Shown here: piece after piece, positions 1 to 64,000 of the stretch
Numbering within the stretch: position 1 is the stretch's first letter
How the letters are laid out: the number at the start of each line of letters is the position of its first letter
Assembly (NCBI GenBank): GCA_916610825.1
Contig: CAKAJK010000003.1
Location: forward strand, 372,001-436,000
DNA length: 64,000 nt
Reading direction: 5' to 3'
Origin: Haliclystus octoradiatus
Lineage: Eukaryota; Cnidaria; Staurozoa; Stauromedusae; Haliclystidae
The notes under the pieces: generated by a model
Database searches by the model: none
Seen by the model: only the letters and a program-made list of their open reading frames with translations
What the model was told of the DNA's origin: nothing
Position numbers and translations under genes: made by a program

Positions 1-13
1 CAAACACGAATTA

Positions 14-21025: not shown

Positions 21026-21170
21026 CCCGAGTTATAATGGCGTAACCGTTTCACAAATAGTATATTTGGAATCAGTAAAAAATTCTGAACAATAATATTG
21101 TATTCAAAACTTCTATTTAACAGTTTCAAATTTTCAACTTTAAACAAAGGAAATCTTCAAACACGAATTA

Positions 21171-39581: not shown

Positions 39582-39735
39582 CTCGAGTTATACTTGAGCA
39601 GTCATTTCACAAATAGTATATTTGGAATCAGTGAAAAATTCTGAACAAGAATAATGTTCTCAAAAGTTTAAAATGTACAGTTTTGAAATTTCGAATTTTA
39701 ACAAAGTTTTGTACGTCAAACTAAAACAAGAATTT
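39582..39735 (+). repeat. Hybrid monomer: B-type 5' part, A-type 3' half
   Basis: The 5' part is that of a B sub-class (ACTTGAGCAGTC, CAGTGAAAAATTC), but after CTGAACAAGAAT it continues with the A-specific ATGTTCTC and GTACGTC. An identical hybrid occurs at 47601-47754, 8019 bp away. The switch lies in or near the segment shared by A and B. Confidence 0.85.
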
Positions 39736-40487: not shown

Positions 40488-43400
40488 CTCGAGTTATAAT
40501 GGCGTAATCGTTTCACAAATAGTATATTTGGAATCAGTGAAAAATTCTGAACAAGAATATTGTATTCAAAACTTCTATTTAACAGTTTCAAATTTTCAAC
40601 TTTACACAAAGGAAATCTTCAAACACGAATTACTCGAGTTATAGTTGAGCAGTCATTTCACAAATAGTATATTTGGAATCAGTGAAAAATTCTGAACAAG
40701 AATATTGTATTCAAAACTTCTATTTAACAGTTTCAAATTTTCAACTTCAAACAAAGGAAATCTTCAAACACGAATTACTCGAGTTATAGTTGAGCAATCA
40801 TTTCACAAATAGTATATTTGGAATCAGTGCAAAATTTTGAAGAAGAATAATTTTCTCAAAAGTTAAAAATGTACAGTTTTGAAATTTCGAATTTTAACAA
40901 AGTTTTGTACGTCAAACTAAAACAAGAATTTCCCGAGTTATAATGGCGTAATCGTTTCACAAATAGTATATTTGGAATCAGTGCAAAATTCTGAACAAGA
41001 ATAATGTTCTCAAAAGTTTAAAATGTACAGTTTTGAAATTTCGAATTTTAACAAAGTTTTGTATGTCAAACTAAAACAAGAATTTCTCGAGTTATAATGG
41101 CGTAATCGTTTCACAAATAGTATATTTGGAATCAGTGAAAAATTCTGAACAAGAATATTGTATTCAAAACTTCTATTTTACAGTTTCAAATTTTCAACTT
41201 TAAACAAAGGAAATCTTCAAACACGAATTACTCGAGTTATAGTTGAGCAATCATTTCACAAATAGTATATTTGGAATCAGTGAAAAATTCTGAACAAGAA
41301 TATTGTATTCAAAACTTCTATTTTACAGTTTCAAATTTTCAACTTTAAACAAAGGAAATCTTCAAACACGAATTACTCGAGTTATACTTGAGCAGTCATT
41401 TCACAAATAGTATATTTGGAATCAGTGAAAAATTCTGAACAAGAATATTGTATTCAAAACTTCTATTTAACAGTTTCAAATTTTCAACTTTACACAAAGG
41501 AAATCTTCAAACACGAATTACTCGAGTTATAGTTGAGCAGTCATTTCACAAATAGTATATTTGGAATCAGTGAAAAATTCTGAACAAGAATATTGTATTC
41601 AAAACTTCTATTTTACAGTTTCAAATTTTCAACTTTAAACAAAGGAAATCTTCAAACACGAATTACTCGAGTTATACTTGAGCAGTCATTTCACAAATAG
41701 TATATTTGGAATCAGTGAAAAATTCTGAACAAGAATATTGTATTCAAAACCTCTATTTAACAGTTTCAAATTTTCAACTTTAAACAAAGGAAATCTTCAA
41801 ACACGAATTACTCGAGTTATAGTTGAGCAATCATTTCACAAATAGTATATTTGGAATCAGTGCAAAATTCTGAACAAGAAAAATGTTCTCAAAAGTTTAA
41901 AATGTACAGTTTTGAAATTTCGAATTTTAACAAAGTTTTGTATGTCAAACTAAAACAAGAATTTCTCGAGTTATAATGGCGTAACCGTTTCACAAATAGT
42001 ATATTTGGAATCAGTAAAAAATTCTGAACAATAATATTGTATTCAAAACTTCTATTTAACAGTTTCAAATTTTCAACTTTAAACAAAGGAAATCTTCAAA
42101 CACGAATTACTCGAGTTATAGTTGAGCAATCATTTCACAAATAGTATATTTGGAATCAGTGCAAAATTCTGAACAAGAATAATGTTCTCAAAAGTTTAAA
42201 ATGTACAGTTTTGAAATTTCGAATTTTAACAAAGTTTTGTACGTCAAACTAAAACAAGAATTTCTCGAGTTATAATGGCGTAATCGTTTCACAAATAGTA
42301 TATTTGGAATCAGTGAAAAATTCTGAACAAGAATATTGTATTCAAAACTTCTATTTAACAGTTTCAAATTTTCAACTTCAAACAAAAGAAATCTTCAAAC
42401 ACGAATTACTCGAGTTATAGTTGAGCAATCATTTCACAAATAGTATATTTGGAATCAGTGCAAAATTTTGAAGAAGAATAATGTTCTCAAAAGTTAAAAA
42501 TGTACAGTTTTGAAATTTCGAATTTTAACAAAGTTTTGTACGTCAAACTAAAACAAGAATTTCCCGAGTTATAATGGCGTAATCGTTTCACAAATAGTAT
42601 ATTTGGAATCAGTGCAAAATTCTGAACAAGAATATTGTATTCAAAACTTCTATTTTACAGTTTCAAATTTTCAACTTTAAACAAAGGAAATCTTCAAACA
42701 CGAATTACTCGAGTTATAATGGCGAAATCGTTTCACAAATAGTATATTTGGAATCAGTGAAAAATTCTGAACAAGAATATTGTATTCAAAACTTCTATTT
42801 AACAGTTTCAAATTTTCAACTTTACACAAAGGAAATCTTCAAACACGAATTACTCGAGTTATAGTTGAGCAGTCATTTCACAAATAGTATATTTGGAATC
42901 AGTGAAAAATTCTGAACAAGAATATTGTATTCAAAACTTCTATTTAACAGTTTCAAATTTTCAACTTCAAACAAAGGAAATCTTCAAACACGAATTACTC
43001 GAGTTATAGTTGAGCAATCATTTCACAAATAGTATATTTGGAATCAGTGCAAAATTTTGAAGAAGAATAATTTTCTCAAAAGTTAAAAATGTACAGTTTT
43101 GAAATTTCGAATTTTAACAAAGTTTTGTACGTCAAACTAAAACAAGAATTTCCCGAGTTATAATGGCGTAATCGTTTCACAAATAGTATATTTGGAATCA
43201 GTGCAAAATTCTGAACAAGAATAATGTTCTCAAAAGTTTAAAATGTACAGTTTTGAAATTTCGAATTTTAACAAAGTTTTGTATGTCAAACTAAAACAAG
43301 AATTTCTCGAGTTATAATGGCGTAATCGTTTCACAAATAGTATATTTGGAATCAGTGAAAAATTCTGAACAAGAATATTGTATTCAAAACTTCTATTTTA

Positions 43401-45525
43401 CAGTTTCAAATTTTCAACTTTAAACAAAGGAAATCTTCAAACACGAATTACTCGAGTTATAGTTGAGCAGTCATTTCACAAATAGTATATTTGGAATCAG
43501 TGAAAAATTCTGAACAAGAATATTGTATTCAAAACTTCTATTTTACAGTTTCAAATTTTCAACTTTAAACAAAGGAAATCTTCAAACACGAATTACTCGA
43601 GTTATACTTGAGCAGTCATTTCACAAATAGTATATTTGGAATCAGTGAAAAATTCTGAACAAGAATATTGTATTCAAAACTTCTATTTAACAGTTTCAAA
43701 TTTTCAACTTTACACAAAGGAAATCTTCAAACACGAATTACTCGAGTTATAGTTGAGCAGTCATTTCACAAATAGTATATTTGGAATCAGTGAAAAATTC
43801 TGAACAAGAATATTGTATTCAAAACTTCTATTTTACAGTTTCAAATTTTCAACTTTAAACAAAGGAAATCTTCAAACACGAATTACTCGAGTTATACTTG
43901 AGCAGTCATTTCACAAATAGTATATTTGGAATCAGTGAAAAATTCTGAACAAGAATATTGTATTCAAAACCTCTATTTAACAGTTTCAAATTTTCAACTT
44001 TAAACAAAGGAAATCTTCAAACACGAATTACTCGAGTTATAGCTGAGCAATCATTTCACAAATAGTATATTTGGAATCAGTGCAAAATTTTGAAGAAGAA
44101 TAATGTTCTCAAAAGTTAAAAATGTACAGTTTTGAAATTTCGAATTTTAACAAAGTTTTGTACGTCAAACTAAAACAAGAATTTCCCGAGTTATAATGGC
44201 TTAATCGTTTCACAAATAGTATATTTGGAATCAGTGCAAAATTCTGAACAAGAATATTGTATTCAAAACTTCTATTTAACAGTTTCAAATTTTCAACTTT
44301 ACACAAAGGAAATCTTCAAACACGAATTACTCGAGTTATAGTTGAGCAGTCATTTCACAAATAGTATATTTGGAATCAGTGAAAAATTCTGAACAAGAAT
44401 ATTGTATTCAAAACTTCTATTTAACAGTTTCAAATTTTCAACTTTAAACAAGGGAAATCTTCAAACACGAATTACTCGAGTTATAGTTGAGCAATCATTT
44501 CACAAATAGTATATTTGGAATCAGTGCAAAATTCTGAACAAGAATAATGTTCTCAAAAGTTTAAAATGTACAGTTTTGAAATTTCGAATTTTAACAAAGT
44601 TTTGTACGTCAAACTAAAACAAGAATTTCTCGAGTTATAATGGCGTAATCGTTTCACAAATAGTATATTTGGAATCAGTGAAAAATTCTGAACAAGAATA
44701 TTGTATTCAAAACTTCTATTTAACAGTTTCAAATTTTCAACTTCAAACAAAGGAAATCTTCAAACACGAATTTCTCGAGTTATAGTTGAGCAATCATTTC
44801 ACAAATAGTATATTTGGAATCAGTGCAAAATTTTGAAGAAGAATAATGTTCTCAAAAGTTAAAAATGTACAGTTTTGAAATTTCGAATTTTAACAAAGTT
44901 TTGTACGTCAAACTAAAACAAGAATTTCCCGAGTTATAATGGCGTAATCGTTTCACAAATAGTATATTTGGAATCAGTGCAAAATTCTGAACAAGAAAAA
45001 TGTTCTCAAAAGTTTAAAATGTACAGTTTTGAAATTTCGAATTTTAACAAAGTTTTGTATGTCAAACTAAAACAAGAATTTCTCGAGTTATAATGGCGTA
45101 ACCGTTTCACAAATAGTATATTTGGAATCAGTAAAAAATTCTGAACAATAATATTGTATTCAAAACTTCTATTTAACAGTTTCAAATTTTCAACTTTAAA
45201 CAAAGGAAATCTTCAAACACGAATTACTCGAGTTATAGTTGAGCAATCATTTCACAAATAGTATATTTGGAATCAGTGCAAAATTCTGAACAAGAAAAAT
45301 GTTCTCAAAAGTTTAAAATGTACAGTTTTGAAATTTCGAATTTTAACAAAGTTTTGTATGTCAAACTAAAACAAGAATTTCTCGAGTTATAATGGCGTAA
45401 CCGTTTCACAAATAGTATATTTGGAATCAGTAAAAAATTCTGAACAATAATATTGTATTCAAAACTTCTATTTAACAGTTTCAAATTTTCAACTTTAAAC
45501 AAAGGAAATCTTCAAACACGAATTA
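40488..45525 (+). repeat. About 5-kb segmental duplication, copy 2 (partner 33812-38838)
   Basis: Second copy of the 5-kb block, 5038 bp against 5027 in copy 1; the 11-bp difference is the deletion in copy 1. Substitutions are few, for example CAGTGAAAAATT near 42312 against CAGTAAAAAATT near 35625. Downstream of 45526 the order instead follows the monomers at about 33.2-34.0 kb. Confidence 0.85.
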
Positions 45526-47600
45526 CTCGAGTTATAGTTGAGCAATCATTTCACAAATAGTATATTTGGAATCAGTGCAAAATTCTGAACAAGAATAATG
45601 TTCTCAAAAGTTTAAAATGTACAGTTTTGAAATTTCGAATTTTAACAAAGTTTTGTACGTCAAACTAAAACAAGAATTTCTCGAGTTATAATGGCGTAAT
45701 CGTTTCACAAATAGTATATTTGGAATCAGTGAAAAATTTTGAACAAGAATATTGTATTCAAAACTTCTATTTAACAGTTTCAAATTTTCAACTTCAAACA
45801 AAAGAAATCTTCAAACACGAATTACTCGAGTTATAGTTGAGCAATCATTTCACAAATAGTATATTTGGAATCAGTGCAAAATTTTGAAGAAGAATAATGT
45901 TCTCAAAAGTTAAAAATGTACAGTTTTGAAATTTCGAATTTTAACAAAGTTTTGTACGTCAAACTAAAACAAGAATTTCCCGAGTTATAATGGCGTAATC
46001 GTTTCACAAATAGTATATTTGGAATCAGTGCAAAATTCTGAACAAGAATATTGTATTCAAAACTTCTATTTTACAGTTTCAAATTTTCAACTTTAAACAA
46101 AGGAAATCTTCAAACACGAATTACTCGAGTTATAATGGCGAAATCGTTTCACAAATAGTATATTTGGAATCAGTGAAAAATTCTGAACAAGAATATTGTA
46201 TTCAAAACTTCTATTTAACAGTTTCAAATTTTCAACTTTACACAAAGGAAATCTTCAAACACGAATTACTCGAGTTATAGTTGAGCAGTCATTTCACAAA
46301 TAGTATATTTGGAATCAGTGAAAAATTCTGAACAAGAATATTGTATTCAAAACTTCTATTTAACAGTTTCAAATTTTCAACTTCAAACAAAGGAAATCTT
46401 CAAACACGAATTACTCGAGTTATAGTTGAGCAATCATTTCACAAATAGTATATTTGGAATCAGTGCAAAATTTTGAAGAAGAATAATTTTCTCAAAAGTT
46501 AAAAATGTACAGTTTTGAAATTTCGAATTTTAACAAAGTTTTGTACGTCAAACTAAAACAAGAATTTCCCGAGTTATAATGGCGTAATCGTTTCACAAAT
46601 AGTATATTTGGAATCAGTGCAAAATTCTGAACAAGAATATTGTATTCAAAACTTCTATTTTACAGTTTCAAATTTTCAACTTTAAACAAAGGAAATCTTC
46701 AAACACGAATTACTCGAGTTATAATGGCGAAATCGTTTCACAAATAGTATATTTGGAATCAGTGAAAAATTCTGAACAAGAATATTGTATTCAAAACTTC
46801 TATTTAACAGTTTCAAATTTTCAACTTTACACAAAGGAAATCTTCAAACACGAATTACTCGAGTTATAGTTGAGCAATCATTTCACAAATAGTATATTTG
46901 GAATCAGTGAAAAATTCTGAACAAGAATATTGTATTCAAAACTTCTATTTAACAGTTTCAAATTTTCAACTTCAAACAAAGGAAATCTTCAAACACGAAT
47001 TACTCGAGTTATAGTTGAGCAATCATTTCACAAATAGTATATTTGGAATCAGTGCAAAATTTTGAAGAAGAATAATTTTCTCAAAAGTTAAAAATGTACA
47101 GTTTTGAAATTTCGAATTTTAACAAAGTTTTGTACGTCAAACTAAAACAAGAATTTCCCGAGTTATAATGGCGTAATCGTTTCACAAATAGTATATTTGG
47201 AATCAGTGCAAAATTCTGAACAAGAATAATGTTCTCAAAAGTTTAAAATGTACAGTTTTGAAATTTCGAATTTTAACAAAGTTTTGTATGTCAAACTAAA
47301 ACAAGAATTTCTCGAGTTATAATGGCGTAATCGTTTCACAAATAGTATATTTGGAATCAGTGAAAAATTCTGAACAAGAATATTGTATTCAAAACTTCTA
47401 TTTTACAGTTTCAAATTTTCAACTTTAAACAAAGGAAATCTTCAAACACGAATTACTCGAGTTATAGTTGAGCAGTCATTTCACAAATAGTATATTTGGA
47501 ATCAGTGAAAAATTCTGAACAAGAATATTGTATTCAAAACTTCTATTTTACAGTTTCAAATTTTCAACTTTAAACAAAGGAAATCTTCAAACACGAATTA

Positions 47601-47754
47601 CTCGAGTTATACTTGAGCAGTCATTTCACAAATAGTATATTTGGAATCAGTGAAAAATTCTGAACAAGAATAATGTTCTCAAAAGTTTAAAATGTACAGT
47701 TTTGAAATTTCGAATTTTAACAAAGTTTTGTACGTCAAACTAAAACAAGAATTT
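47601..47754 (+). repeat. Second copy of the hybrid B/A monomer
   Basis: Same composition as the hybrid at 39582-39735: ACTTGAGCAGTC and CAGTGAAAAATTC at the 5' side, ATGTTCTC and GTACGTC at the 3' side. Neighbouring monomers also match at +8019 bp (39660 and 47679, 40113 and 48132, 40412 and 48431), so it was copied within a larger block. Confidence 0.83.
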
Positions 47755-49104
47755 CTCGAGTTATAATGGCGTAATCGTTTCACAAATAGTATATTTGGAA
47801 TCAGTGAAAAATTCTGAACAAGAATATTGTATTCAAAACTTCTATTTAACAGTTTCAAATTTTCAACTTCAAACAAAGGAAATCTTCAAACACGAATTAC
47901 TCGAGTTATAGTTGAGCAATCATTTCACAAATAGTATATTTGGAATCAGTGCAAAATTTTGAAGAAGAATAATGTTCTCAAAAGTTAAAAATGTACAGTT
48001 TTGAAATTTCGAATTTTAACAAAGTTTTGTACGTCAAACTAAAACAAGAATTTCCCGAGTTATAATGGCGTAATCGTTTCACAAATAGTATATTTGGAAT
48101 CAGTGCAAAATTCTGAACAAGAATAATGTTCTCAAAAGTTTAAAATGTACAGTTTTGAAATTTCGAATTTTAACAAAGTTTTGTATGTCAAACTAAAACA
48201 AGAATTTCTCGAGTTATAATGGCGTAACCGTTTCACAAATAGTATATTTGGAATCAGTAAAAAATTCTGAACAATAATATTGTATTCAAAACTTCTATTT
48301 AACAGTTTCAAATTTTCAACTTTAAACAAAGGAAATCTTCAAACACGAATTACTCGAGTTATAATTGAGCAATCATTTCACAAATAGTATATTTGGAATC
48401 AGTGCAAAATTCTGAACAAGAATAATGTTCTCAAAAGTTTAAAATGTACAGTTTTGAAATTTCGAATTTTAACAAAGTTTTGTACGTCAAACTAAAACAA
48501 GAATTTCTCGAGTTATAATGGCGTAATCGTTTCACAAATAGTATATTTGGAATCAGTGAAAAATTCTGAACAAGAATATTGTATTCAAAACTTCTATTTA
48601 ACAGTTTCAAATTTTCAACTTCAAACAAAGGAAATCTTCAAACACGAATTACTCGAGTTATAGTTGAGCAATCATTTCACAAATAGTATATTTGGAATCA
48701 GTGCAAAATTTTGAAGAAGAATAATGTTCTCAAAAGTTAAAAATGTACAGTTTTGAAATTTCGAATTTTAACAAAGTTTTGTACGTCAAACTAAAACAAG
48801 AATTTCCCGAGTTATAATGGCGTAATCGTTTCACAAATAGTATATTTGGAATCAGTGCAAAATTCTGAACAAGAATAATGTTCTCAAAAGTTTAAAATGT
48901 ACAGTTTTGAAATTTCGAATTTTAACAAAGTTTTGTATGTCAAACTAAAACAAGAATTTCTCGAGTTATAATGGCGTAATCGTTTCACAAATAGTATATT
49001 TGGAATCAGTGAAAAATTCTGAACAAGAATATTGTATTCAAAACTTCTATTTTACAGTTTCAAATTTTCAACTTTAAACAAAGGAAATCTTCAAACACGA
49101 ATTA

Positions 49105-52100
49105 CTCGAGTTATAATTGAGCAATCATTTCACAAATAGTATATTTGGAATCAGTGCAAAATTCTGAACAAGAATAATGTTCTCAAAAGTTTAAAATGTA
49201 CAGTTTTGAAATTTCGAATTTTAACAAAGTTTTGTACGTCAAACTAAAACAAGAATTTCTCGAGTTATAATGGCGTAATCGTTTCACAAATAGTATATTT
49301 GGAATCAGTGAAAAATTCTGAACAAGAATATTGTATTCAAAACTTCTATTTAACAGTTTCAAATTTTCAACTTCAAACAAAGGAAATCTTCAAACACGAA
49401 TTACTCGAGTTATAGTTGAGCAATCATTTCACAAATAGTATATTTGGAATCAGTGCAAAATTTTGAAGAAGAATAATGTTCTCAAAAGTTAAAAATGTAC
49501 AGTTTTGAAATTTCGAATTTTAACAAAGTTTTGTACGTCAAACTAAAACAAGAATTTCCCGAGTTATAATGGCGTAATCGTTTCACAAATAGTATATTTG
49601 GAATCAGTGCAAAATTCTGAACAAGAATAATGTTCTCAAAAGTTTAAAATGTACAGTTTTGAAATTTCGAATTTTAACAAAGTTTTGTATGTCAAACTAA
49701 AACAAGAATTTCTCGAGTTATAATGGCGTAATCGTTTCACAAATAGTATATTTGGAATCAGTGAAAAATTCTGAACAAGAATATTGTATTCAAAACTTCT
49801 ATTTTACAGTTTCAAATTTTCAACTTTAAACAAAGGAAATCTTCAAACACGAATTACTCGAGTTATACTTGAGCAGTCATTTCACAAATAGTATATTTGG
49901 AATCAGTGAAAAATTCTGAACAAGAATATTGTATTCAAAACTTCTATTTTACAGTTTCAAATTTTCAACTTTAAACAAAGGAAATCTTCAAACACGAATT
50001 ACTCGAGTTATACTTGAGCAGTCATTTCACAAATAGTATATTTGGAATCAGTGAAAAATTCTGAACAAGAATATTGTATTCAAAACTTCTATTTAACAGT
50101 TTCAAATTTTCAACTTTACACAAAGGAAATCTTCAAACACGAATTACTCGAGTTATAGTTGAGCAGTCATTTCACAAATAGTATATTTGGAATCAGTGAA
50201 AAATTCTGAACAAGAATATTGTATTCAAAACCTCTATTTAACAGTTTCAAATTTTCAACTTTAAACAAAGGAAATCTTCAAACACGAATTACTCGAGTTA
50301 TAGCTGAGCAATCATTTCACAAATAGTATATTTGGAATCAGTGCAAAATTTTGAAGAAGAATAATGTTCTCAAAAGTTAAAAATGTACAGTTTTGAAATT
50401 TCGAAATTTAACAAAGTTTTGTACGTCAAACTAAAACAAGAATTTCCCGAGTTATAATGGCTTAATCGTTTCACAAATAGTATATTTGGAATCAGTGAAA
50501 AATTCTGAACAAGAATATTGTATTCAAAACTTCTATTTAACAGTTTCAAATTTTCAACTTTAAACAAGGGAAATCTTCAAACACGAATTACTCGAGTTAT
50601 AGTTGAGCAATCATTTCACAAATAGTATATTTGGAATCAGTGCAAAATTCTGAACAAGAATAATGTTCTCAAAAGTTTAAAATGTACAGTTTTGAAATTT
50701 CGAATTTTAACAAAGTTTTGTACGTCAAACTAAAACAAGAATTTCTCGAGTTATAATGGCGTAATCGTTTCACAAATAGTATATTTGGAATCAGTGAAAA
50801 ATTCTGAACAAGAATATTGTATTCAAAACTTCTATTTAACAGTTTCAAATTTTCAACTTCAAACAAAGGAAATCTTCAAACACGAATTACTCGAGTTATA
50901 GTTGAGCAATCATTTCACAAATAGTATATTTGGAATCAGTGCAAAATTTTGAAGAAGAATAATGTTCTCAAAAGTTAAAAATGTACAGTTTTGAAATTTC
51001 GAATTTTAACAAAGTTTTGTACGTCAAACTAAAACAAGAATTTCCCGAGTTATAATGGCGTAATCGTTTCACAAATAGTATATTTGGAATCAGTGCAAAA
51101 TTCTGAACAAGAAAAATGTTCTCAAAAGTTTAAAATGTACAGTTTTGAAATTTCGAATTTTAACAAAGTTTTGTATGTCAAACTAAAACAAGAATTTCTC
51201 GAGTTATAATGGCGTAACCGTTTCACAAATAGTATATTTGGAATCAGTAAAAAATTCTGAACAATAATATTGTATTCAAAACTTCTATTTAACAGTTTCA
51301 AATTTTCAACTTTAAACAAAGGAAATCTTCAAACACGAATTACTCGAGTTATAGTTGAGCAATCATTTCACAAATAGTATATTTGGAATCAGTGCAAAAT
51401 TCTGAACAAGAATAATGTTCTCAAAAGTTTAAAATGTACAGTTTTGAAATTTCGAATTTTAACAAAGTTTTGTACGTCAAACTAAAACAAGAATTTCTCG
51501 AGTTATAATGGCGTAATCGTTTCACAAATAGTATATTTGGAATCAGTGAAAAATTCTGAACAAGAATATTGTATTCAAAACTTCTATTTAACAGTTTCAA
51601 ATTTTCAACTTCAAACAAAGGAAATCTTCAAACACGAATTACTCGAATTATAGTTGAGCAATCATTTCACAAATAGTATATTTGGAATCAGTGCAAAATT
51701 TTGAAGAAGAATAATGTTCTCAAAAGTTAAAAATGTACAGTTTTGAAATTTCGAATTTTAACAAAGTTTTGTACGTCAAACTAAAACAAGAATTTCCCGA
51801 GTTATAATGGCGTAATCGTTTCACAAATAGTATATTTGGAATCAGTGCAAAATTCTGAACAAGAATAATGTTCTCAAAAGTTTAAAATGTACAGTTTTGA
51901 AATTTCGAATTTTAACAAAGTTTTGTATGTCAAACTAAAACAAGAATTTCTCGAGTTATAATGGCGTAATCGTTTCACAAATAGTATATTTGGAATCAGT
52001 GAAAAATTCTGAACAAGAATATTGTATTCAAAACTTCTATTTTACAGTTTCAAATTTTCAACTTTAAACAAAGGAAATCTTCAAACACGAATTACTCGAG

Positions 52101-54622
52101 TTATACTTGAGCAGTCATTTCACAAATAGTATATTTGGAATCAGTGAAAAATTCTGAACAAGAATATTGTATTCAAAACTTCTATTTTACAGTTTCAAAT
52201 TTTCAACTTTAAACAAAGGAAATCTTCAAACACGAATTACTCGAGTTATACTTGAGCAGTCATTTCACAAATAGTATATTTGGAATCAGTGAAAAATTCT
52301 GAACAAGAATATTGTATTCAAAACTTCTATTTAACAGTTTCAAATTTTCAACTTTACACAAAGGAAATCTTCAAACACGAATTACTCGAGTTATAGTTGA
52401 GCAGTCATTTCACAAATAGTATATTTGGAATCAGTGAAAAATTCTGAACAAGAATATTGTATTCAAAACCTCTATTTAACAGTTTCAAATTTTCAACTTT
52501 AAACAAAGGAAATCTTCAAACACGAATTACTCGAGTTATAGCTGAGCAATCATTTCACAAATAGTATATTTGGAATCAGTGCAAAATTTTGAAGAAGAAT
52601 AATGTTCTCAAAAGTTAAAAATGTACAGTTTTGAAATTTCGAAATTTAACAAAGTTTTGTACGTCAAACTAAAACAAGAATTTCCCGAGTTATAATGGCT
52701 TAATCGTTTCACAAATAGTATATTTGGAATCAGTGAAAAATTCTGAACAAGAATATTGTATTCAAAACTTCTATTTAACAGTTTCAAATTTTCAACTTTA
52801 AACAAGGGAAATCTTCAAACACGAATTACTCGAGTTATAGTTGAGCAATCATTTCACAAATAGTATATTTGGAATCAGTGCAAAATTCTGAACAAGAATA
52901 ATGTTCTCAAAAGTTTAAAATGTACAGTTTTGAAATTTCGAATTTTAACAAAGTTTTGTACGTCAAACTAAAACAAGAATTTCTCGAGTTATAATGGCGT
53001 AATCGTTTCACAAATAGTATATTTGGAATCAGTGAAAAATTCTGAACAAGAATATTGTATTCAAAACTTCTATTTAACAGTTTCAAATTTTCAACTTCAA
53101 ACAAAGGAAATCTTCAAACACGAATTACTCGAGTTATAGTTGAGCAATCATTTCACAAATAGTATATTTGGAATCAGTGCAAAATTTTGAAGAAGAATAA
53201 TGTTCTCAAAAGTTAAAAATGTACAGTTTTGAAATTTCGAATTTTAACAAAGTTTTGTACGTCAAACTAAAACAAGAATTTCCCGAGTTATAATGGCGTA
53301 ATCGTTTCACAAATAGTATATTTGGAATCAGTGCAAAATTCTGAACAAGAAAAATGTTCTCAAAAGTTTAAAATGTACAGTTTTGAAATTTCGAATTTTA
53401 ACAAAGTTTTGTATGTCAAACTAAAACAAGAATTTCTCGAGTTATAATGGCGTAACCGTTTCACAAATAGTATATTTGGAATCAGTAAAAAATTCTGAAC
53501 AATAATATTGTATTCAAAACTTCTATTTAACAGTTTCAAATTTTCAACTTTAAACAAAGGAAATCTTCAAACACGAATTACTCGAGTTATAGTTGAGCAA
53601 TCATTTCACAAATAGTATATTTGGAATCAGTGCAAAATTCTGAACAAGAATAATGTTCTCAAAAGTTTAAAATGTACAGTTTTGAAATTTCGAATTTTAA
53701 CAAAGTTTTGTACGTCAAACTAAAACAAGAATTTCTCGAGTTATAATGGCGTAATCGTTTCACAAATAGTATATTTGGAATCAGTGAAAAATTCTGAACA
53801 AGAATATTGTATTCAAAACTTCTATTTAACAGTTTCAAATTTTCAACTTCAAACAAAAGAAATCTTCAAACACGAATTACTCGAGTTATAGTTGAGCAAT
53901 CATTTCACAAATAGTATATTTGGAATCAGTGCAAAATTTTGAAGAAGAATAATGTTCTCAAAAGTTAAAAATGTACAGTTTTGAAATTTCGAATTTTAAC
54001 AAAGTTTTGTACGTCAAACTAAAACAAGAATTTCCCGAGTTATAATGGCGTAATCGTTTTACAAATAGTATATTTGGAATCAGTGCAAAATTCTGAACAA
54101 GAATAATGTTCTCAAAAGTTTAAAATGTACAGTTTTGAAATTTCGAATTTTAACAAAGTTTTGTATGTCAAACTAAAACAAGAATTTCTCGAGTTATAAT
54201 GGCGTAATCGTTTCACAAATAGTATATTTGGAATCAGTGAAAAATTCTGAACAAGAATATTGTATTCAAAACTTCTATTTTACAGTTTCAAATTTTCAAC
54301 TTTAAACAAAGGAAATCTTCAAACACGAATTACTCGAGTTATACTTGAGCAGTCATTTCACAAATAGTATATTTGGAATCAGTGAAAAATTCTGAACAAG
54401 AATATTGTATTCAAAACTTCTATTTTACAGTTTCAAATTTTCAACTTTAAACAAAGGAAATCTTCAAACACGAATTACTCGAGTTATACTTGAGCAGTCA
54501 TTTCACAAATAGTATATTTGGAATCAGTGAAAAATTCTGAACAAGAATATTGTATTCAAAACTTCTATTTAACAGTTTCAAATTTTCAACTTTACACAAA
54601 GGAAATCTTCAAACACGAATTA
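49105..54622 (+). repeat. 2238-bp 15-mer higher-order repeat, about 2.5 copies
   Basis: Units are 49105-51342, 51343-53580 and a partial 53581-54622. Each full unit is 7 A plus 8 B. The first two share a private change, TTCGAAATTTAAC in place of TTCGAATTTTAAC (near 50402 and 52640), seen nowhere else in the window. Register is lost at 54623, where a CAATC monomer replaces the expected CAGTC one. Confidence 0.88.
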
Positions 54623-57600
54623 CTCGAGTTATAGTTGAGCAATCATTTCACAAATAGTATATTTGGAATCAGTGCAAAATTTTGAAGAAGAATAATGTTC
54701 TCAAAAGTTAAAAATTTACAGTTTTGAAATTTCGAATTTTAACAAAGTTTTGTACGTCAAACTAAAACAAGAATTTCCCGAGTTATAATGGCGTAATCGT
54801 TTCACAAATAGTATATTTGGAATCAGTGCAAAATTCTGAACAAGAAAAATGTTCTCAAAAGTTTAAAATGTACAGTTTTGAAATTTCGAATTTTAACAAA
54901 GTTTTGTATGTCAAACTAAAACAAGAATTTCTCGAGTTATAATGGCGTAACCGTTTCACAAATAGTATATTTGGAATCAGTAAAAAATTCTGAACAATAA
55001 TATTGTATTCAAAACTTCTATTTAACAGTTTCAAATTTTCAACTTTAAACAAAGGAAATCTTCAAACACGAATTACTCGAGTTATAGTTGAGCAATCATT
55101 TCACAAATAGTATATTTGGAATCAGTGCAAAATTCTGAACAAGAATAATGTTCTCAAAAGTTTAAAATGTACAGTTTTGAAATTTCGAATTTTAACAAAG
55201 TTTTGTACGTCAAACTAAAACAAGAATTTCTCGAGTTATAATGGCGTAATCGTTTCACAAATAGTATATTTGGAATCAGTGAAAAATTCTGAACAAGAAT
55301 ATTGTATTCAAAACTTCTATTTAACAGTTTCAAATTTTCAACTTCAAACAAAAGAAATCTTCAAACACGAATTACTCGAGTTATAGTTGAGCAATCATTT
55401 CACAAATAGTATATTTGGAATCAGTGCAAAATTTTGAAGAAGAATAATGTTCTCAAAAGTTAAAAATGTACAGTTTTGAAATTTCGAATTTTAACAAAGT
55501 TTTGTACGTCAAACTAAAACAAGAATTTCCCGAGTTATAATGGCGTAATCGTTTCACAAATAGTATATTTGGAATCAGTGCAAAATTCTGAACAAGAATA
55601 ATGTTCTCAAAAGTTTAAAATGTACAGTTTTGAAATTTCGAATTTTAACAAAGTTTTGTATGTCAAACTAAAACAAGAATTTCTCGAGTTATAATGGCGT
55701 AATCGTTTCACAAATAGTATATTTGGAATCAGTGAAAAATTCTGAACAAGAATATTGTATTCAAAACTTCTATTTTACAGTTTCAAATTTTCAACTTTAA
55801 ACAAAGGAAATCTTCAAACACGAATTACTCGAGTTATACTTGAGCAGTCATTTCACAAATAGTATATTTGGAATCAGTGAAAAATTCTGAACAAGAATAT
55901 TGTATTCAAAACTTCTATTTTACAGTTTCAAATTTTCAACTTTAAACAAAGGAAATCTTCAAACACGAATTACTCGAGTTATACTTGAGCAGTCATTTCA
56001 CAAATAGTATATTTGGAATCAGTGAAAAATTCTGAACAAGAATATTGTATTCAAAACTTCTATTTAACAGTTTCAAATTTTCAACTTTACACAAAGGAAA
56101 TCTTCAAACACGAATTACTCGAGTTATAGTTGAGCAGTCATTTCACAAATAGTATATTTGGAATCAGTGAAAAATTCTGAACAAGAATATTGTATTCAAA
56201 ACTTCTATTTTACAGTTTCAAATTTTCAACTTTAAACAAAGGAAATCTTCAAACACGAATTACTCGAGTTATAGCTGAGCAATCATTTCACAAATAGTAT
56301 ATTTGGAATCAGTGCAAAATTTTGAAGAAGAATAATGTTCTCAAAAGTTAAAAATGTACAGTTTTGAAATTTCGAATTTTAACAAAGTTTTGTACGTCAA
56401 ACTAAAACAAGAATTTCCCGAGTTATAATGGCTTAATCGTTTCACAAATAGTATATTTGGAATCAGTGAAAAATTCTGAACAAGAATATTGTATTCAAAA
56501 CTTCTATTTTACAGTTTCAAATTTTCAACTTTAAACAAAGGAAATCTTCAAACACGAATTACTCGAGTTATACTTGAGCAGTCATTTCACAAATAGTATA
56601 TTTGGAATCAGTGAAAAATTCTGAACAAGAATATTGTATTCAAAACTTCTATTTAACAGTTTCAAATTTTCAACTTTACACAAAGGAAATCTTCAAACAC
56701 GAATTACTCGAGTTATAGTTGAGCAGTCATTTCACAAATAGTATATTTGGAATCAGTGAAAAATTCTGAACAAGAATATTGTATTCAAAACTTCTATTTT
56801 ACAGTTTCAAATTTTCAACTTTAAACAAAGGAAATCTTCAAACACGAATTACTCGAGTTATACTTGAGCAGTCATTTCACAAATAGTATATTTGGAATCA
56901 GTGAAAAATTCTGAACAAGAATATTGTATTCAAAACCTCTATTTAACAGTTTCAAATTTTCAACTTTAAACAAAGGAAATCTTCAAACACGAATTACTCG
57001 AGTTATAGCTGAGCAATCATTTCACAAATAGTATATTTGGAATCAGTGCAAAATTCTGAACAAGAATAATGTTCTCAAAAGTTTAAAATGTACAGTTTTG
57101 AAATTTCGAATTTTAACAAAGTTTTGTACGTCAAACTAAAACAAGAATTTCTCGAGTTATAATGGCGTAATCGTTTCACAAATAGTATATTTGGAATCAG
57201 TGAAAAATTCTGAACAAGAATATTGTATTCAAAACTTCTATTTAACAGTTTCAAATTTTCAACTTCAAACAAAAGAAATCTTCAAACACGAATTACTCGA
57301 GTTATAGTTGAGCAATCATTTCACAAATAGTATATTTGGAATCAGTGCAAAATTTTGAAGAAGAATAATGTTCTCAAAAGTTAAAAATGTACAGTTTTGA
57401 AATTTCGAATTTTAACAAAGTTTTGTACGTCAAACTAAAACAAGAATTTCCCGAGTTATAATGGCGTAATCGTTTCACAAATAGTATATTTGGAATCAGT
57501 GCAAAATTCTGAACAAGAATAATGTTCTCAAAAGTTTAAAATGTACAGTTTTGAAATTTCGAATTTTAACAAAGTTTTGTATGTCAAACTAAAACAAGAA

Positions 57601-60600
57601 TTTCTCGAGTTATAATGGCGTAATCGTTTCACAAATAGTATATTTGGAATCAGTGAAAAATTCTGAACAAGAATATTGTATTCAAAACTTCTATTTTACA
57701 GTTTCAAATTTTCAACTTTAAACAAAGGAAATCTTCAAACACGAATTACTCGAGTTATACTTGAGCAGTCATTTCACAAATAGTATATTTGGAATCAGTG
57801 AAAAATTCTGAACAAGAATATTGTATTCAAAACTTCTATTTTACAGTTTCAAATTTTCAACTTTAAACAAAGGAAATCTTCAAACACGAATTACTCGAGT
57901 TATACTTGAGCAGTCATTTCACAAATAGTATATTTGGAATCAGTGAAAAATTCTGAACAAGAATATTGTATTCAAAACTTCTATTTAACAGTTTCAAATT
58001 TTCAACTTTACACAAAGGAAATCTTCAAACACGAATTACTCGAGTTATAGTTGAGCAGTCATTTCACAAATAGTATATTTGGAATCAGTGAAAAATTCTG
58101 AACAAGAATATTGTATTCAAAACTTCTATTTTACAGTTTCAAATTTTCAACTTTAAACAAAGGAAATCTTCAAACACGAATTACTCGAGTTATACTTGAG
58201 CAGTCATTTCACAAATAGTATATTTGGAATCAGTGAAAAATTCTGAACAAGAATATTGTATTCAAAACCTCTATTTAACAGTTTCAAATTTTCAACTTTA
58301 AACAAAGGAAATCTTCAAACACGAATTACTCGAGTTATAGCTGAGCAATCATTTCACAAATAGTATATTTGGAATCAGTGCAAAATTTTGAAGAAGAATA
58401 ATGTTCTCAAAAGTTAAAAATGTACAGTTTTGAAATTTCGAATTTTAACAAAGTTTTGTACGTCAAACTAAAACAAGAATTTCCCGAGTTATAATGGCTT
58501 AATCGTTTCACAAATAGTATATTTGGAATCAGTGAAAAATTCTGAACAAGAATATTGTATTCAAAACTTCTATTTTACAGTTTCAAATTTTCAACTTTAA
58601 ACAAAGGAAATCTTCAAACACGAATTACTCGAGTTATACTTGAGCAGTCATTTCACAAATAGTATATTTGGAATCAGTGAAAAATTCTGAACAAGAATAT
58701 TGTATTCAAAACTTCTATTTAACAGTTTCAAATTTTCAACTTTACACAAAGGAAATCTTCAAACACGAATTACTCGAGTTATAGTTGAGCAGTCATTTCA
58801 CAAATAGTATATTTGGAATCAGTGAAAAATTCTGAACAAGAATATTGTATTCAAAACTTCTATTTTACAGTTTCAAATTTTCAACTTTAAACAAAGGAAA
58901 TCTTCAAACACGAATTACTCGAGTTATACTTGAGCAGTCATTTCACAAATAGTATATTTGGAATCAGTGAAAAATTCTGAACAAGAATATTGTATTCAAA
59001 ACCTCTATTTAACAGTTTCAAATTTTCAACTTTAAACAAAGGAAATCTTCAAACACGAATTACTCGAGTTATAGCTGAGCAATCATTTCACAAATAGTAT
59101 ATTTGGAATCAGTGCAAAATTTTGAAGAAGAATAATGTTCTCAAAAGTTAAAAATGTACAGTTTTGAAATTTCGAATTTTAACAAAGTTTTGTACGTCAA
59201 ACTAAAACAAGAATTTCCCGAGTTATAATGGCTTAATCGTTTCACAAATAGTATATTTGGAATCAGTGAAAAATTCTGAACAAGAATATTGTATTCAAAA
59301 CTTCTATTTAACAGTTTCAAATTTTCAACTTTAAACAAAGGAAATCTTCAAACACGAATTACTCGAGTTATAGTTGAGCAATCATTTCACAAATAGTATA
59401 TTTGGAATCAGTGCAAAATTTTGAAGAAGAATAATGTTCTCAAAAGTTAAAAATGTACAGTTTTGAAATTTCGAATTTTAACAAAGTTTTGTACGTCAAA
59501 CTAAAACAAGAATTTCCCGAGTTATAATGGCTTAATCGTTTCACAAATAGTATATTTGGAATCAGTGAAAAATTCTGAACAAGAATATTGTATTCAAAAC
59601 TTCTATTTTACAGTTTCAAATTTTCAACTTTAAACAAAGGAAATCTTCAAACACGAATTACTCGAGTTATACTTGAGCAGTCATTTCACAAATAGTATAT
59701 TTGGAATCAGTGAAAAATTCTGAACAAGAATATTGTATTCAAAACTTCTATTTAACAGTTTCAAATTTTCAACTTTACACAAAGGAAATCTTCAAACACG
59801 AATTACTCGAGTTATAGTTGAGCAGTCATTTCACAAATAGTATATTTGGAATCAGTGAAAAATTCTGAACAAGAATATTGTATTCAAAACTTCTATTTTA
59901 CAGTTTCAAATTTTCAACTTTAAACAAAGGAAATCTTCAAACACGAATTACTCGAGTTATACTTGAGCAGTCATTTCACAAATAGTATATTTGGAATCAG
60001 TGAAAAATTCTGAACAAGAATATTGTATTCAAAACCTCTATTTAACAGTTTCAAATTTTCAACTTTAAACAAAGGAAATCTTCAAACACGAATTACTCGA
60101 GTTATAGCTGAGCAATCATTTCACAAATAGTATATTTGGAATCAGTGCAAAATTTTGAAGAAGAATAATGTTCTCAAAAGTTAAAAATGTACAGTTTTGA
60201 AATTTCGAATTTTAACAAAGTTTTGTACGTCAAACTAAAACAAGAATTTCCCGAGTTATAATGGCTTAATCGTTTCACAAATAGTATATTTGGAATCAGT
60301 GAAAAATTCTGAACAAGAATATTGTATTCAAAACTTCTATTTAACAGTTTCAAATTTTCAACTTTAAACAAAGGAAATCTTCAAACACGAATTACTCGAG
60401 TTATAGTTGAGCAATCATTTCACAAATAGTATATTTGGAATCAGTGCAAAATTCTGAACAAGAATAATGTTCTCAAAAGTTTAAAATGTACAGTTTTGAA
60501 ATTTCGAATTTTAACAAAGTTTTGTACGTCAAACTAAAAAAAGAATTTCTCGAGGTATAATGGCGTAATCGTTTCACAAATAGTATATTTGGAATCAGTG

Positions 60601-60847
60601 AAAAATTCTGAACAAGAATATTGTATTCAAAACTTCTATTTAACAGTTTCAAATTTTCAACTTCAAACAAAGGAAATCTTCAAACACGAATTACTCGAGT
60701 TATAGTTGAGCAATCATTTCACAAATAGTATATTTGGAATCAGTGCAAAATTTTGAAGAAGAATAATGTTCTCAAAAGTTAAAAATGTACAGTTTTGAAA
60801 TTTCGAATTTTAACAAAGTTTTGTACGTCAAACTAAAACAAGAATTT

Positions 60848-60876
60848 CCCGAGTTATAATGGCGTAATCGTTTCAC
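60848..60876 (+). repeat. Truncated last monomer and right edge of the array
   Basis: The final monomer starts at CCCGAG (60848) and matches the usual sequence for 29 bases, through TTTCAC. At 60877 the expected AAATAG is replaced by CGTAGCGCGATG and no satellite similarity remains. The break falls at the first base of the conserved dyad. The preceding full monomers are nearly standard; the B at 60549 has CTCGAGGTATAATGG and the A before it ends in CTAAAAAAAG. Confidence 0.95.
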
Positions 60877-61890
60877 CGTAGCGCGATGATTGCGACAAAG
60901 GCCTTATTCACGGTTGCGTGAAGAGCAAATTTGGGCAAAAAACACGCACATTTTGGCATAAATTGTCCATTTATTAAAAATATTTATAGCGAAAACAATC
61001 AATACGGTTGGAAATCATATCAGAGAATGAAAATATAACATTGAAAACAAGTCATACCTTTCAATTCATTACGGCGAATATATTATTTACTATATTATGT
61101 TCATAACTTTTGAATTTCTTACATTGTTAATGGCGATTTAATACAGCAGAAGTTAGTGGCAGCAAAATTATCGATATCTGATAAGCGACGAGGGCTATAA
61201 ACACAGTACGGTTGGAATATTACAGAACATGTTCTGATCTAAATTAAGCTGTTAAAATAAGTTTCCAAATCGTTGTAAATCATATATCGTTGCCAATGGA
61301 AAACATAGCATTATTCATGTTTCAAACATGAAATAGAGCTTGTAAATAACGGCATCCTAAGCAATCTATGATCTCAAACTTCACCCAAAACGTGTATAGG
61401 TCCTTCGAGAAAGACGTTCATGTGCTTTGGCAATGACTGGCCTTTTTATCTAGCCTCCATCTATAAGTATTTCTGTCATGAAAGTGAAGCGATTTTATGT
61501 TTAGTTTCCGCCCCTTTATTGGGGGCAACACTCCCCGTTTTACCGATGATCTTCTGTACAATGCAGATAGCGCCGCTACAGGAATAAGTTTTTGCGTAGA
61601 ATGAAATGATAGGTCTACAGCTACATTAACTGTGTGATTATAACTAAAGTGATACCTTACCAAGGAAATAATTTTAAATCCACCTCCTTAAAATCGCAAA
61701 TCGAATTCAAAAGGTTTATAGTATTTTATGAGGTACAGCAAGCCTAGGGGGATACACATTACACTGTTTTTGAATGTCTAAGAAACATTACCAAAATGTG
61801 TAGTATTTGATTTATTTTATTTATATTTACAGCTATGTCAGCTGACATCAAGCGCTGTTTTACTGCTATTAGATAATTATATCTAGTGTT
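60877..61890. other. Flanking DNA with no recognised gene
   Basis: Non-satellite, AT-rich sequence. I see no convincing coding region. An 81-codon minus-strand frame (61418-61663) begins with TTG rather than ATG and resembles no family I know. The only local structures noted are a near-palindrome at 61314-61332 (TTCATGTTT, one base, AAACATGAA) and a 14-bp palindrome CAGAACATGTTCTG at 61223-61236. Neither has an evident role. Confidence 0.7.
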
Positions 61891-61900
61891 TATTATAAGT

Positions 61901-61962
61901 GCACAAGTAGCACAGCGGCTAAGTGCCCGGAGAGACCTTCATGCGATTCTTTGTCGGTTAAT
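61901..61962 (+). mobile_element. Possible decayed tRNA-derived SINE head (pol III A and B boxes)
   Basis: TAGCACAGCGG (61908-61918) fits the RNA polymerase III A-box pattern TRGYNNANNNG. About 33 bases after its start, ATGCGATTCTT (61941-61951) resembles the B-box core TTCGATTC with one mismatch. The flanking words (AGTAGCACAGCGGCTAAGTGCC) look like tRNA-derived SINE heads. No foldable full tRNA is present, so this is not a tRNA gene. The downstream 114-bp tandem units and ATT-rich tract could be its body and tail, but that is inference. Confidence 0.4.
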
Positions 61963-62001
61963 ATGTTATTTGCAATTGCCTATAAATGGTTATATCTCCT
62001 C

Positions 62002-62229
62002 CAAAAGAACAGAAGCAATATCATGCAGAAATAATAATATCAGAAGGCAGGAACATATTTTTACAGTAAAATCGAAAACAATGAAGCAATCATTTTTCCA
62101 TATTTCAGGAATTATCAAAAGAACAGAAGCAATATAATGCAGAAATAGTAATATCAGAAGGCAGGAACATATTTTTACAGTAAAATCAAAAACAATGAAG
62201 CAATAATTTTTCCATATTTCAGGAATTAT
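62002..62229 (+). repeat. Tandem duplication of a 114-bp unit
   Basis: Units 62002-62115 and 62116-62229 are head to tail with the same length and about four differences (TATCATG/TATAATG, AATAATAAT/AATAGTAAT, TCGAAA/TCAAAA, CAATCAT/CAATAAT). Each begins CAAAAGAACAGAAGC and ends CATATTTCAGGAATTAT. Similarity to the satellite monomers was not seen. Confidence 0.93.
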
Positions 62230-62285
62230 AGATTATAATAACATTATACAGTGCTTAGAAGTGACGCTATACAAATATAGTTTTC

Positions 62286-62320
<35 letters not shown>

Positions 62321-62443
62321 ATTATTATCATTATCATTATTATTATTATTATTGCTATATTATTACTATTACTATTACCATAACCATTACTATTGCTATT
62401 ATTATTATAACTATTATTATTACTATTATTATTATTATTATTA
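62286..62443 (+). repeat. Imperfect (ATT)n microsatellite
   Basis: About 158 bp of TTA/ATT triplets with scattered ATC, GCT, ACT and CCA interruptions. On the minus strand it gives a low-complexity frame rich in Asn and Ile, begun by TTG, which is not a gene. It lies just downstream (in the minus sense) of the transposase-like exon, about 195 bp past its stop codon. Confidence 0.95.
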
Positions 62444-62638
62444 AGCATTGATTTTGAGTATATTAAATTATAATATAATTGGATATATAATTGAGTATAT
62501 TGAAGTACATTATAAATTTGCGTGGGTATAAAACTGCAACCTACCATAACACATGATTTGAAGAAGAAAATTTTTTGCAATGAAATTCATCAGTTCCAAG
62601 GGAAGGGAATTATCAGACATGCAAATGACTAAGGTTGG

Positions 62639-63606
62639 TCAGGCATCATAAAAAAAACCTCGAGTGTGGCAATTAACTGCTTGAGCAGCAGCATTCCTTG
62701 GAGTAGTCACTCTATTTATGGCACGATTCATTCTGTGATTTAAATATTCCACCGACTGCTGTTGGAAGCAATGGATATTACCAAAATTTTCATATAGCCA
62801 CGGTATATGTAGTAATAAGTGGATATATGTTGAGAAGCTAGAAGGACAGAATGCTCTTCTAAAGTTTGCCAGAAAGTCAACTATATTATTTTTAAGAGCA
62901 GCATATGTTTCATTGTCATTTGTAGTTCTGATAGATTCCCATACACTATGCCAAGCAGAAAAGGCTTTTTCAATCTCTTCTATTTTTTGTAATGACAGCT
63001 CAAAACAGAATGAAGGTAATTTTTCTCCACAGAAAACATTAGAAAACATTTTTTTTCTCATAGACATGGTCAATTTTGAAAATTTAGTTCCTTCGCTGTC
63101 ATTACCTTTCATAGAAAAGCCTGTGATGCCTTCTGATTGACATAATGCATTGAACTTTTCCCTTCCCCTGTCACTGATAAGATCAAGGCAGCGTTGAAAG
63201 AGCTGATCACTGACTCTAAGATAACAATGCATAGTATCAATGAACACAAAGTTGAATTTGCTTGAATCTACAAGAGGTTTGTTGCCGTCATTGTTATACC
63301 CAGGGTCAGTATCAAGCAGCGTGGGAAGGACAAACTTTTCCTCGATCAGCTGATAGCGGGGTACGCAAATATGATTGAATTTGTTGTTAGGAATGCAACA
63401 ATAGTCCCAATCCACTTTACTGCACTTACAATAAATACATGTGTTATGGCCAGTAGCAGCTTTATACCCCAGTATTGTCAGCATTGTTTTGTAATCAACG
63501 CACAAGTTGTGCTCCAACTGCACATCAGAATCAAATTCTTGAGACATGAATGATGGTAACTTCTGCCAGAAGCCACTAGCTTTATGAAGATCATAAGTCT
63601 CTGCAC
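62639..63606 (-). CDS. RAG1-like DDE transposase, C-terminal catalytic exon (5' exons not seen)
   Basis: The frame is open from a probable 3' splice site at 63607/63606 to TGA at 62639-62641: 321 codons, of which the 302 from the first ATG (63547) are numbered here. Candidate residues are D18, C37/C40 (CIYC), IDTMHC at 103-108, H243 and H247, and E267. From memory, the RAG1 core has D708, C727/C730, an IDALHC motif, H937/H942 and E962. D-to-C is 19 residues in both, last H-to-E is 20 in both, and CxxC to IDxxHC is about 68 against 66. A CxxC...H...H zinc site inside an RNase H-like fold is also known in Transib, hAT and CACTA transposases, so the exact superfamily is open. The first catalytic Asp (D600 in RAG1) is not in this exon, so the gene is partial here. 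The frame has no internal stop, suggesting a young or still constrained copy. No terminal inverted repeats or target duplications were found. An unnamed invertebrate family with similar CxxC and IDxLH motifs is the likely closest relative. Confidence 0.65.
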
Positions 63607-63636
63607 CTGGAAGAGAATCGACACAGAATGTGTTAG
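63607..63636 (-). other. Predicted 3' splice site with branch point
   Basis: On the minus strand CTAAC (63636-63632) matches the branch-point consensus, with its A at 63633. A pyrimidine-rich stretch TTCTCTTCCAG follows, ending at 63607, 26 bases from the branch A. The transposase frame is open back through this site but meets TAA at 63643-63641 just inside the putative intron, which supports splicing here. The intron would interrupt a codon after its first base (phase 1). The donor was not identified. Confidence 0.6.
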
Positions 63637-64000
63637 ATAATTATGAAAAATAAGCTCCATCTTTACATGTTTTCATGTAGGTCAGTAGGATATAAATTAT
63701 CAGACTAACAAGATTGATTTTGTTGTTGAAATCTATTGGTCTCAAATAAAAAGTTAAATCTCAATCCAAAACCCTAAATTTATATCACAAATATACGACA
63801 AATAGAAGTAAGGAGTAAATTTGTATTGAAGTCAAGCACCTGAAACGTTTTTTTCAATATATGATACATAGGGTGATTCTGCTAGCAGGATTTTGAACGC
63901 CATAGTATATCGTCTACATTGCAACTAATTTAATGTGTATATGACAGACAGCTATGAAATTATGGCAACTGCTGCTATGAGCAGGTGGCCTTTTTATACA
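63637..64000 (-). other. Probable intron or upstream flank of the transposase-like gene
   Basis: No reading frame of note continues the transposase in any minus-strand frame here, and I could not recognise an upstream exon or the missing first Asp motif. A short minus-strand frame starting at ATG 63660 runs out of frame across the acceptor and is a shadow. TATAAAAAGG on the minus strand at 63998-63989 resembles a TATA box but stands without other support. Confidence 0.45.

What the first reader, a model, noticed from the sequence alone, without database searches (positions are those of the whole stretch)
62639..63606. RAG1-like catalytic core encoded beside a giant satellite array
Five sets of candidate residues (D18, C37/C40, the IDTMHC block, H243/H247, E267) are collinear with the RAG1 core, and two spacings are identical (19 residues from Asp to first Cys, 20 from last His to Glu). 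The segment between also has RAG1-like words: a phenylalanine-methionine-GN stretch near 144-149 and a VW pair near 202-203. This may be a relative of RAG/Transib transposases outside the named groups, or a Transib/CACTA-like element. The RAG1 positions are recalled, not looked up.
Basis: partly seen in the sequence, partly recalled or inferred. Interest (0 to 1): 0.72.

Follow-up and report, generated by a model that had tools for sequence, protein, structure and literature searches.

The report
RAG1-like transposon with one-base duplication
The predicted protein is the last exon of a transposase in a recently mobile jumping gene of a stalked jellyfish; its active site is laid out like the enzyme that cuts our antibody genes, but it leaves an unusual one-base scar where it inserts.

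Summary
The ORF is real: it is the last exon (62639-63606, minus) of a 600-aa transposase in a 6,118-bp DNA transposon (window 60877 to 66994; right end 3 kb outside the window). The genome is Haliclystus octoradiatus (Staurozoa), identified by exact scaffold lengths. The window copy and six others (99.6-99.9% identical over 5.2-6.1 kb) keep both ORFs intact, so the element jumped recently. The window copy sits inside the satellite array. The missing first-Asp exon was found just outside the window (64215-64469). Nine RAG1-type residues (D600, D708, C727/C730, IDxLH Asp/His, H937/H942, E962) align with mouse RAG1 and are invariant in five families and a remote relative. The two 'identical spacings' are not RAG1-specific: CACTA elements of the same genome share them. 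Ends (CGTAGYG) and target-site duplication (exactly 1 bp; 18 of 21 insertions; empty site in 408 satellite units) fit neither Transib/RAG (5 bp) nor the published range of the CACTA-Mirage-Chapaev-Transib clade (2-5 bp). A conserved 101-aa ORF1 precedes the transposase, its stop overlapping or near the transposase ATG. Best reading: an apparently undescribed lineage of the RAG1/Transib/CACTA clade. No structure test was possible; the RAG1 profile match is modest (E 0.0026).

The parts
60877..64000 (-). Part of the 6,118-bp transposon inside the window; the element continues to window position 66994 (G000:C12:432877-438994)
   Evidence: Sharp ends shared by 7 copies with unrelated flanks
60877..60883 (+). 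3' end of the element, CGTAGCG on the + strand; the inverted partner CGTAGCG at 66994-66988 (minus) is outside the window. The two ends are identical over 7 bp, then only partly alike
60876..60876 (.). One copy of the 1-bp target-site duplication (C on + strand); the other copy is at 66995, outside the window
   Evidence: Satellite empty site TTTCACAAATAGT 408 times, TTTCACCAAATAGT 0 times in the window
62639..63606 (-). Last exon of the transposase (ORF2): second catalytic Asp, C(2)C, D(2)H, H(3)H, catalytic Glu
   Evidence: conserved in the families aligned
63607..64000 (-). Window part of the last intron (63607-64214); upstream exons lie outside the window: exon with first Asp 64215-64469, first ORF2 exon 64868-65447, ORF1 65447-65752
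   Evidence: GT..AG sites and phases
62002..62229 (.). 114-bp tandem repeat, 2 copies, in the element's 3' non-coding part
   Evidence: also in the other six copies
62286..62443 (.). (TTA)n simple repeat in the element's 3' non-coding part
1..60875 (.). Tandem satellite array into which the element inserted (array continues beyond the element)

Best explanation
It is the catalytic exon of an autonomous cut-and-paste DNA transposon of the RAG1/Transib/CACTA clade (CMCT) whose ends and target duplication do not fit the definitions of the named lineages I could test; whether it is a separate branch or a drifted branch of a named one is left to the rivals. Shown: sharp CGTAGYG inverted ends, a 1-bp target duplication, recent spread, an intact spliced transposase gene with the RAG1-type catalytic and zinc residues, and a small conserved ORF1 whose stop overlaps or lies close to the transposase start. 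Inferred: the transposase folds as an RNase H-like DDE enzyme with a zinc-bound helical insertion, binds the ends, excises the element, and joins its two 3' ends to the two target strands only 1 bp apart, so that gap repair copies one base. Also inferred: ORF1 and the transposase come from one transcript, the transposase by termination-reinitiation. ORF1 may be an accessory protein; its role is not known.
For: 7 copies of 6,115-6,357 bp with unrelated flanks. The six others are 99.6-99.9% identical to the window copy over 5.2-6.1 kb; in five of them a separate 0.88-kb left segment is 98.2-98.9%. 7 of 7 read ORF1 and ORF2 without a premature stop. TSD: 18 of 21 insertions match at the flanking base; 2 of 21 match over two bases, one of them among the 18. 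Empty site in 408 satellite units, 0 with the doubled base. A second family (CGTAGTGCCAA ends) shows the 1-bp match in 4 of 4 copies with both ends. Catalytic residues: invariant in A3, set opposite RAG1's by MAFFT and, from D708 on, by hhalign. ORF1: codon-position differences rank 3 > 1 > 2 in 6 of 6 pairs. Its stop overlaps the ORF2 ATG in 4 lineages and lies 26 nt before it in a fifth.
Against: The RAG1 profile match is modest (hhalign probability 11.5%, E 0.0026; without the remote relative E 0.051). HMMER finds no PDB hit and no Pfam match above its cut-off. The only structure model, from one sequence, has mean pLDDT 39.5 and is useless. 3 of 21 insertions lack a 1-bp match: one shows 2 bp, two have a mutated terminal base. 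Reinitiation is inferred from sequence only. Repbase and Dfam were not available, so the lineage may already be named there.
Confidence: 0.8

Rival explanations
1. It is a divergent branch of CACTA/EnSpm (or Chapaev/Mirage) whose ends and TSD drifted, not a separate lineage.
For: C(2)C, H(3)H and the two spacings are shared with same-genome CACTA; weak DUF4218 match, E 0.17, for the window exon; hhalign to own-genome CACTA E 0.026 with a 7-row profile. Other CMCT lineages vary in TSD length (2-5 bp, PMC12730594 passages).
Against: With the 6-row profile A3 the CACTA match is E 0.26, weaker than RAG1's 0.0026, though the CACTA set is only three pieced-together sequences. No Transposase_21 match, and DUF4218 below cut-off. 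Ends CGTAGYG; TSD 1 bp.
Confidence: 0.25
2. It is a true RAG/Transib-family transposon (RAG1L-like).
For: Catalytic and zinc residues collinear with RAG1; IDTMHC against IDALHC; the remote relative L045 has FSFT and H(4)H like RAG1.
Against: 5-bp TSDs and RSS-like 7-bp ends are typical of Transibs (PMC4411706 passages); here 1 bp and CGTAGYG. No Pfam RAG1 match in the genome by HMMER (but that search's 14 controls rang nowhere). Apart from ORF1 and the ORF2 exons no frame in the element exceeds 153 aa; kelch repeats were not searched for.
Confidence: 0.08
3. The two ORFs are expressed from separate promoters or splice forms, not by stop-start coupling.
For: In one family (L020) the ORF1 stop and ORF2 ATG do not overlap but are 26 nt apart.
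Against: Stop and start overlap in L010 (TAATG), L016 (ATGA), L025 (TGATG) and L027 (11 nt; its near-copy L028 has an earlier stop).
Confidence: 0.35
4. Chance ORF or single host gene.
For: None found.
Against: 7 dispersed copies with the same ends, intact splice sites, families at about 50% identity with coding-type substitution.
Confidence: 0.01

Closest known systems
RAG1 / RAG1-like (TransibSU, ProtoRAG) and Transib transposases
   Same: Order D, D, C(2)C, D(2)H, H..H, E; D-19-C and H-20-E spacings; IDxLHC block (compared with mouse RAG1 only)
   Different: 1-bp instead of 5-bp TSD, CGTAGYG ends, H(3)H instead of RAG1's H(4)H (the remote relative L045 has H(4)H), extra ORF1, no sizeable second gene
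CACTA/EnSpm of the same genome (Transposase_21 + DUF4218)
   Same: Same catalytic plan, H(3)H, D-19-C (2 of 3), H-20-E (1 of 1)
   Different: Weaker profile match, no Pfam match above cut-off for the window family, different ends and TSD (those of CACTA recalled, not measured here)
ESTA, Plavaka, Lanisha (CMCT lineages, PMC12730594 passages)
   Same: Same motif set; ESTA also looks like RAG1 by HHpred in that paper; lineages told apart by TSD, ends and tree
   Different: ESTA makes TA TSDs; Plavaka 2-3 bp with ends TGT..ACA or CATCA..TGATG; Lanisha's TSD not seen. Sequences not available here for comparison
Spy (PHIS)
   Same: An exceptional TSD: none at all
   Different: Other transposase clade (PIF/Harbinger-ISL2EU-Spy); known here from a title and a passage in PMC12730594

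Membership tests
CMCT clade (EnSpm-Mirage-Chapaev-Transib and relatives) | DDE with C(2)C and H(3-4)H between second D and E | tested here: met
   A3 invariant columns; definition from PMC12730594 passages
CMCT clade (EnSpm-Mirage-Chapaev-Transib and relatives) | TSD of 2 to 5 bp | tested here: not met
   1 bp in 18 of 21 insertions
CMCT clade (EnSpm-Mirage-Chapaev-Transib and relatives) | 5'-CA..TG-3' termini ('in most cases') | tested here: not met
   CGTAG..CTACG ends
Transib / RAG-like transposon | 5-bp TSD and heptamer-like termini | tested here: not met
   definition from PMC4411706 passages
Transib / RAG-like transposon | RAG1-type catalytic and zinc residues in order | tested here: met
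Transib / RAG-like transposon | Significant match to the RAG1 profile | tested here: inconclusive
   hhalign E 0.0026 against one RAG1 sequence, E 0.051 without L045; HMMER no hit
Transib / RAG-like transposon | Phylogenetic placement with Transib | not tested
   No Transib or RAG1L letters obtained; of RAG1 only mouse letters
CACTA/EnSpm | CACTA/CACTG ends with 2-3-bp TSD (recalled; CAC..GTG and 3 bp in PMC12730594 passages) | tested here: not met
CACTA/EnSpm | Transposase_21 or DUF4218 match | tested here: not met
   Only DUF4218 E 0.17, below cut-off, for the window exon; none in the 6 members of A2 at E up to 1
DDE RNase H fold | Catalytic residues converge in a predicted structure | not testable with these tools
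   Single-sequence model pLDDT 39.5; relatives from this genome are not on the tool's list of accepted sequences

The most novel reading that the evidence does not exclude
A superfamily-level lineage between Transib/RAG1 and CACTA whose transposase joins DNA ends with a 1-bp stagger and leaves a 1-bp duplication, carried by a two-gene element whose transposase is translated by stop-start reinitiation after a small ORF1. This would be a RAG1-type core working with the shortest possible non-zero target duplication.
Probability: 0.4. Interest if true: 0.75.

Novelty: new variant of a known kind. Interest (0 to 1): 0.6.

Why it matters
TSD length reports the spacing of the two strand-transfer sites. 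A RAG1-type enzyme with a 1-bp spacing, next to relatives that make 2-5 bp, would show that this geometry is freer than thought and give a natural system to study it. It also adds a recently mobile, apparently intact RAG1-clade element in a non-bilaterian animal, useful for the question of how RAG1 relates to Transib and CACTA. The two-ORF stop-start layout seems uncommon for an animal DNA transposon (recalled, not searched).

Tried and rejected
AlphaFold2 on the window exon alone gave pLDDT 39.5, so no fold search was run. Profile searches of the PDB with A2 and A3 found nothing at E up to 10. Searches for relatives in viral and prokaryotic contigs confirmed none of 97 and 53 pattern matches. 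Genome search for Pfam RAG1 found none, but its 14 controls also rang nowhere, so absence is not shown. Pfam matches below cut-off were set aside as chance or coiled coil: Vps35 E 0.015 and others for A2 members, DUF4407 E 0.0016 and ten weaker ones for the first ORF2 exon. A first splice model that joined ORF1 to ORF2 was dropped because the ORF1 stop overlaps or adjoins the ORF2 ATG. A supposed small exon at element 2282-2374 was rejected: its frame holds a stop, and it matches one other family's loci and a place outside the gene in L025. The 'identical spacings' argument was rejected as non-specific. For TSDs, of 26 hits to the 5' end and 20 to the 3' end I used the 7 full copies and 10 other pairs; the rest were unpaired, truncated or left out. 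Of the second family I used the 4 loci with both ends; L022 and L023 lack the 5' end.

Full report
What was checked.

Where it is. The window is G000:C12:372001-436000 of a genome of 261,861,806 bases in 33 contigs. Contig lengths C1 39,977,743, C5 28,991,210 and C10 20,733,292 equal the longest, N50 and N90 lengths printed for Haliclystus octoradiatus jrHalOcto1.1 in PMC9975415 (first of two parts of the text read; that paper gives 261,898,343 bp in all, slightly more than here). The mitochondrial COX2 reads better with code 4 than code 5 (judged by a recalled conserved motif), which fits a cnidarian.

The element. tblastn in the genome gave 69 match rows; 7 are full length at 99-100% protein identity (the window copy and six others), the next group about 50%, then lower. 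The seven copies share sharp ends with unrelated flanks and are 6,115-6,357 bp long. The six others are 99.6-99.9% identical to the window copy over 5.2-6.1 kb; in five of them a separate 0.88-kb left segment is 98.2-98.9% identical. The ends are CGTAGCG, inverted over 7 bp; a second family of about 50% protein identity ends in CGTAGTGCCAA. The window copy spans window 60877-66994. Satellite lies on both sides, so the element inserted into the array.

Target duplication. In 18 of 21 insertions the last base before the element equals the first base after it (chance about 6e-8 at 0.28 per site); 2 bp match in 2 of 21, one of these being among the 18; 3 bp in none. The exceptions are one 2-bp-only case and two copies with a mutated terminal base. 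The satellite gives the empty site directly: TTTCACAAATAGT occurs 408 times in the window, TTTCACCAAATAGT never, and the filled site has one C on each side. The duplication is therefore 1 bp.

Genes. ORF1 (window 65447-65752, 101 aa) and ORF2 (600 aa, exons 64868-65447, 64215-64469, 62639-63606) lie on the minus strand; introns have GT..AG ends and matching phases. The ORF1 stop and ORF2 start overlap as TAATG here, ATGA in L016, TGATG in L025 and by 11 nt in L027 (its near-copy L028 has an earlier stop); they are 26 nt apart in L020; L024 is degraded. In 7 of 7 copies both ORFs read without a premature stop. Codon-position differences between families rank third > first > second in 6 of 6 ORF1 pairs (four families), 3 of 3 pairs of the first ORF2 exon and 6 of 6 pairs of the last exon, so ORF1 is very likely a protein. 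The two ORF1 sequences scanned have no Pfam match with E below 0.065.

Relation to RAG1. In A3 (five families and the remote relative L045) D51, D123, C142, C145, D209, H212, H348, H352 and E372 are invariant. MAFFT sets all nine opposite D600, D708, C727, C730, the Asp and His of IDxLH, H937, H942 and E962 of mouse RAG1. RAG1 residue numbers are recalled; the letters come from PDB output. hhalign on its own aligns 236 columns from D708 to E962 in the same register, E 0.0026, score 31.0; 200 shuffles of RAG1 reach at most 28.2, the reversed sequence 18.7. Against this: probability only 11.5%, E 0.051 without L045, no HMMER hit in PDB or to the Pfam RAG1 model. The same-genome CACTA set gives E 0.26 (6-row profile) or 0.026 (7-row), and CACTA against RAG1 0.61; L045 with L066 alone gives RAG1 0.015 and CACTA 0.04. 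The CACTA set is small, so 'closer to RAG1 than to CACTA' is suggested, not shown. L045 is tied to the window family by a reciprocal search: window-family loci at E 7e-12 to 9e-4, L045 at E 0.035 and 0.44 the other way.

Same-genome CACTA has D-19-C in 2 of 3 and H-20-E in 1 of 1 examined. The two spacings therefore mark more than RAG1. The clade name CMCT, its motifs, 2-5-bp TSDs and CA..TG ends are from PMC12730594 (passages and part 1 of the reference list). The 5-bp TSD of Transib is from PMC4411706 (passages).

Print. Searches for 1-bp TSD wordings in the held library gave no DNA transposon (one search's single hit was a LINE-1 paper, seen in the listing only). No held paper had 4 of 6 terms on Haliclystus and transposons. 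Repbase and Dfam were not searchable here.

Verdict. A recently mobile CMCT-type DNA transposon with a 1-bp duplication, untypical ends and a two-ORF layout; probably an unnamed lineage; RAG1-like in the layout of its active site, not shown to be a RAG/Transib family member.

Noticed in passing
L045 (G000:C10:7369500-7373800), L066, L067: A second, remote transposase family with H(4)H and FSFT words even closer to RAG1 by eye; in L045 its N-terminal part is in one frame with the core, broken by one stop. Ends and TSD not determined.
   Followed up: partly
Element position about 880; L012 about 1406-1645 (oriented): Five of seven copies carry an extra insert of about 240 bp with about 3 bp repeated at its edges; the window copy and L009 lack it. 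A nested element is likely.
   Followed up: no
G000 C1:39946, C4:27756, C5:37223, C1:39960051: Copies of the element's 5' end (89-92%, lacking the first 12 bp) lie within about 40 kb of scaffold ends, as if spread by subtelomeric duplication.
   Followed up: no
window 1-60818: Satellite with periods of about 145, 299 and 453 bp, roughly one, two and three units; GC 27% against about 34% for the chromosomes. It sits on a 0.93-Mb scaffold that is not one of the nine chromosomes.
   Followed up: no
G000: The genome also gave 36 CACTA (Transposase_21) and 42 KDZ match rows, several with open frames.
   Followed up: no
G000 C6:8180970-8183597 and nine other places: A related group (83-84% at the 5' end, 84-92% at the 3' end): 9 of 10 places are 2.6-2.7 kb, one 7.4 kb; probably non-autonomous, coding content not examined.
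   Followed up: partly
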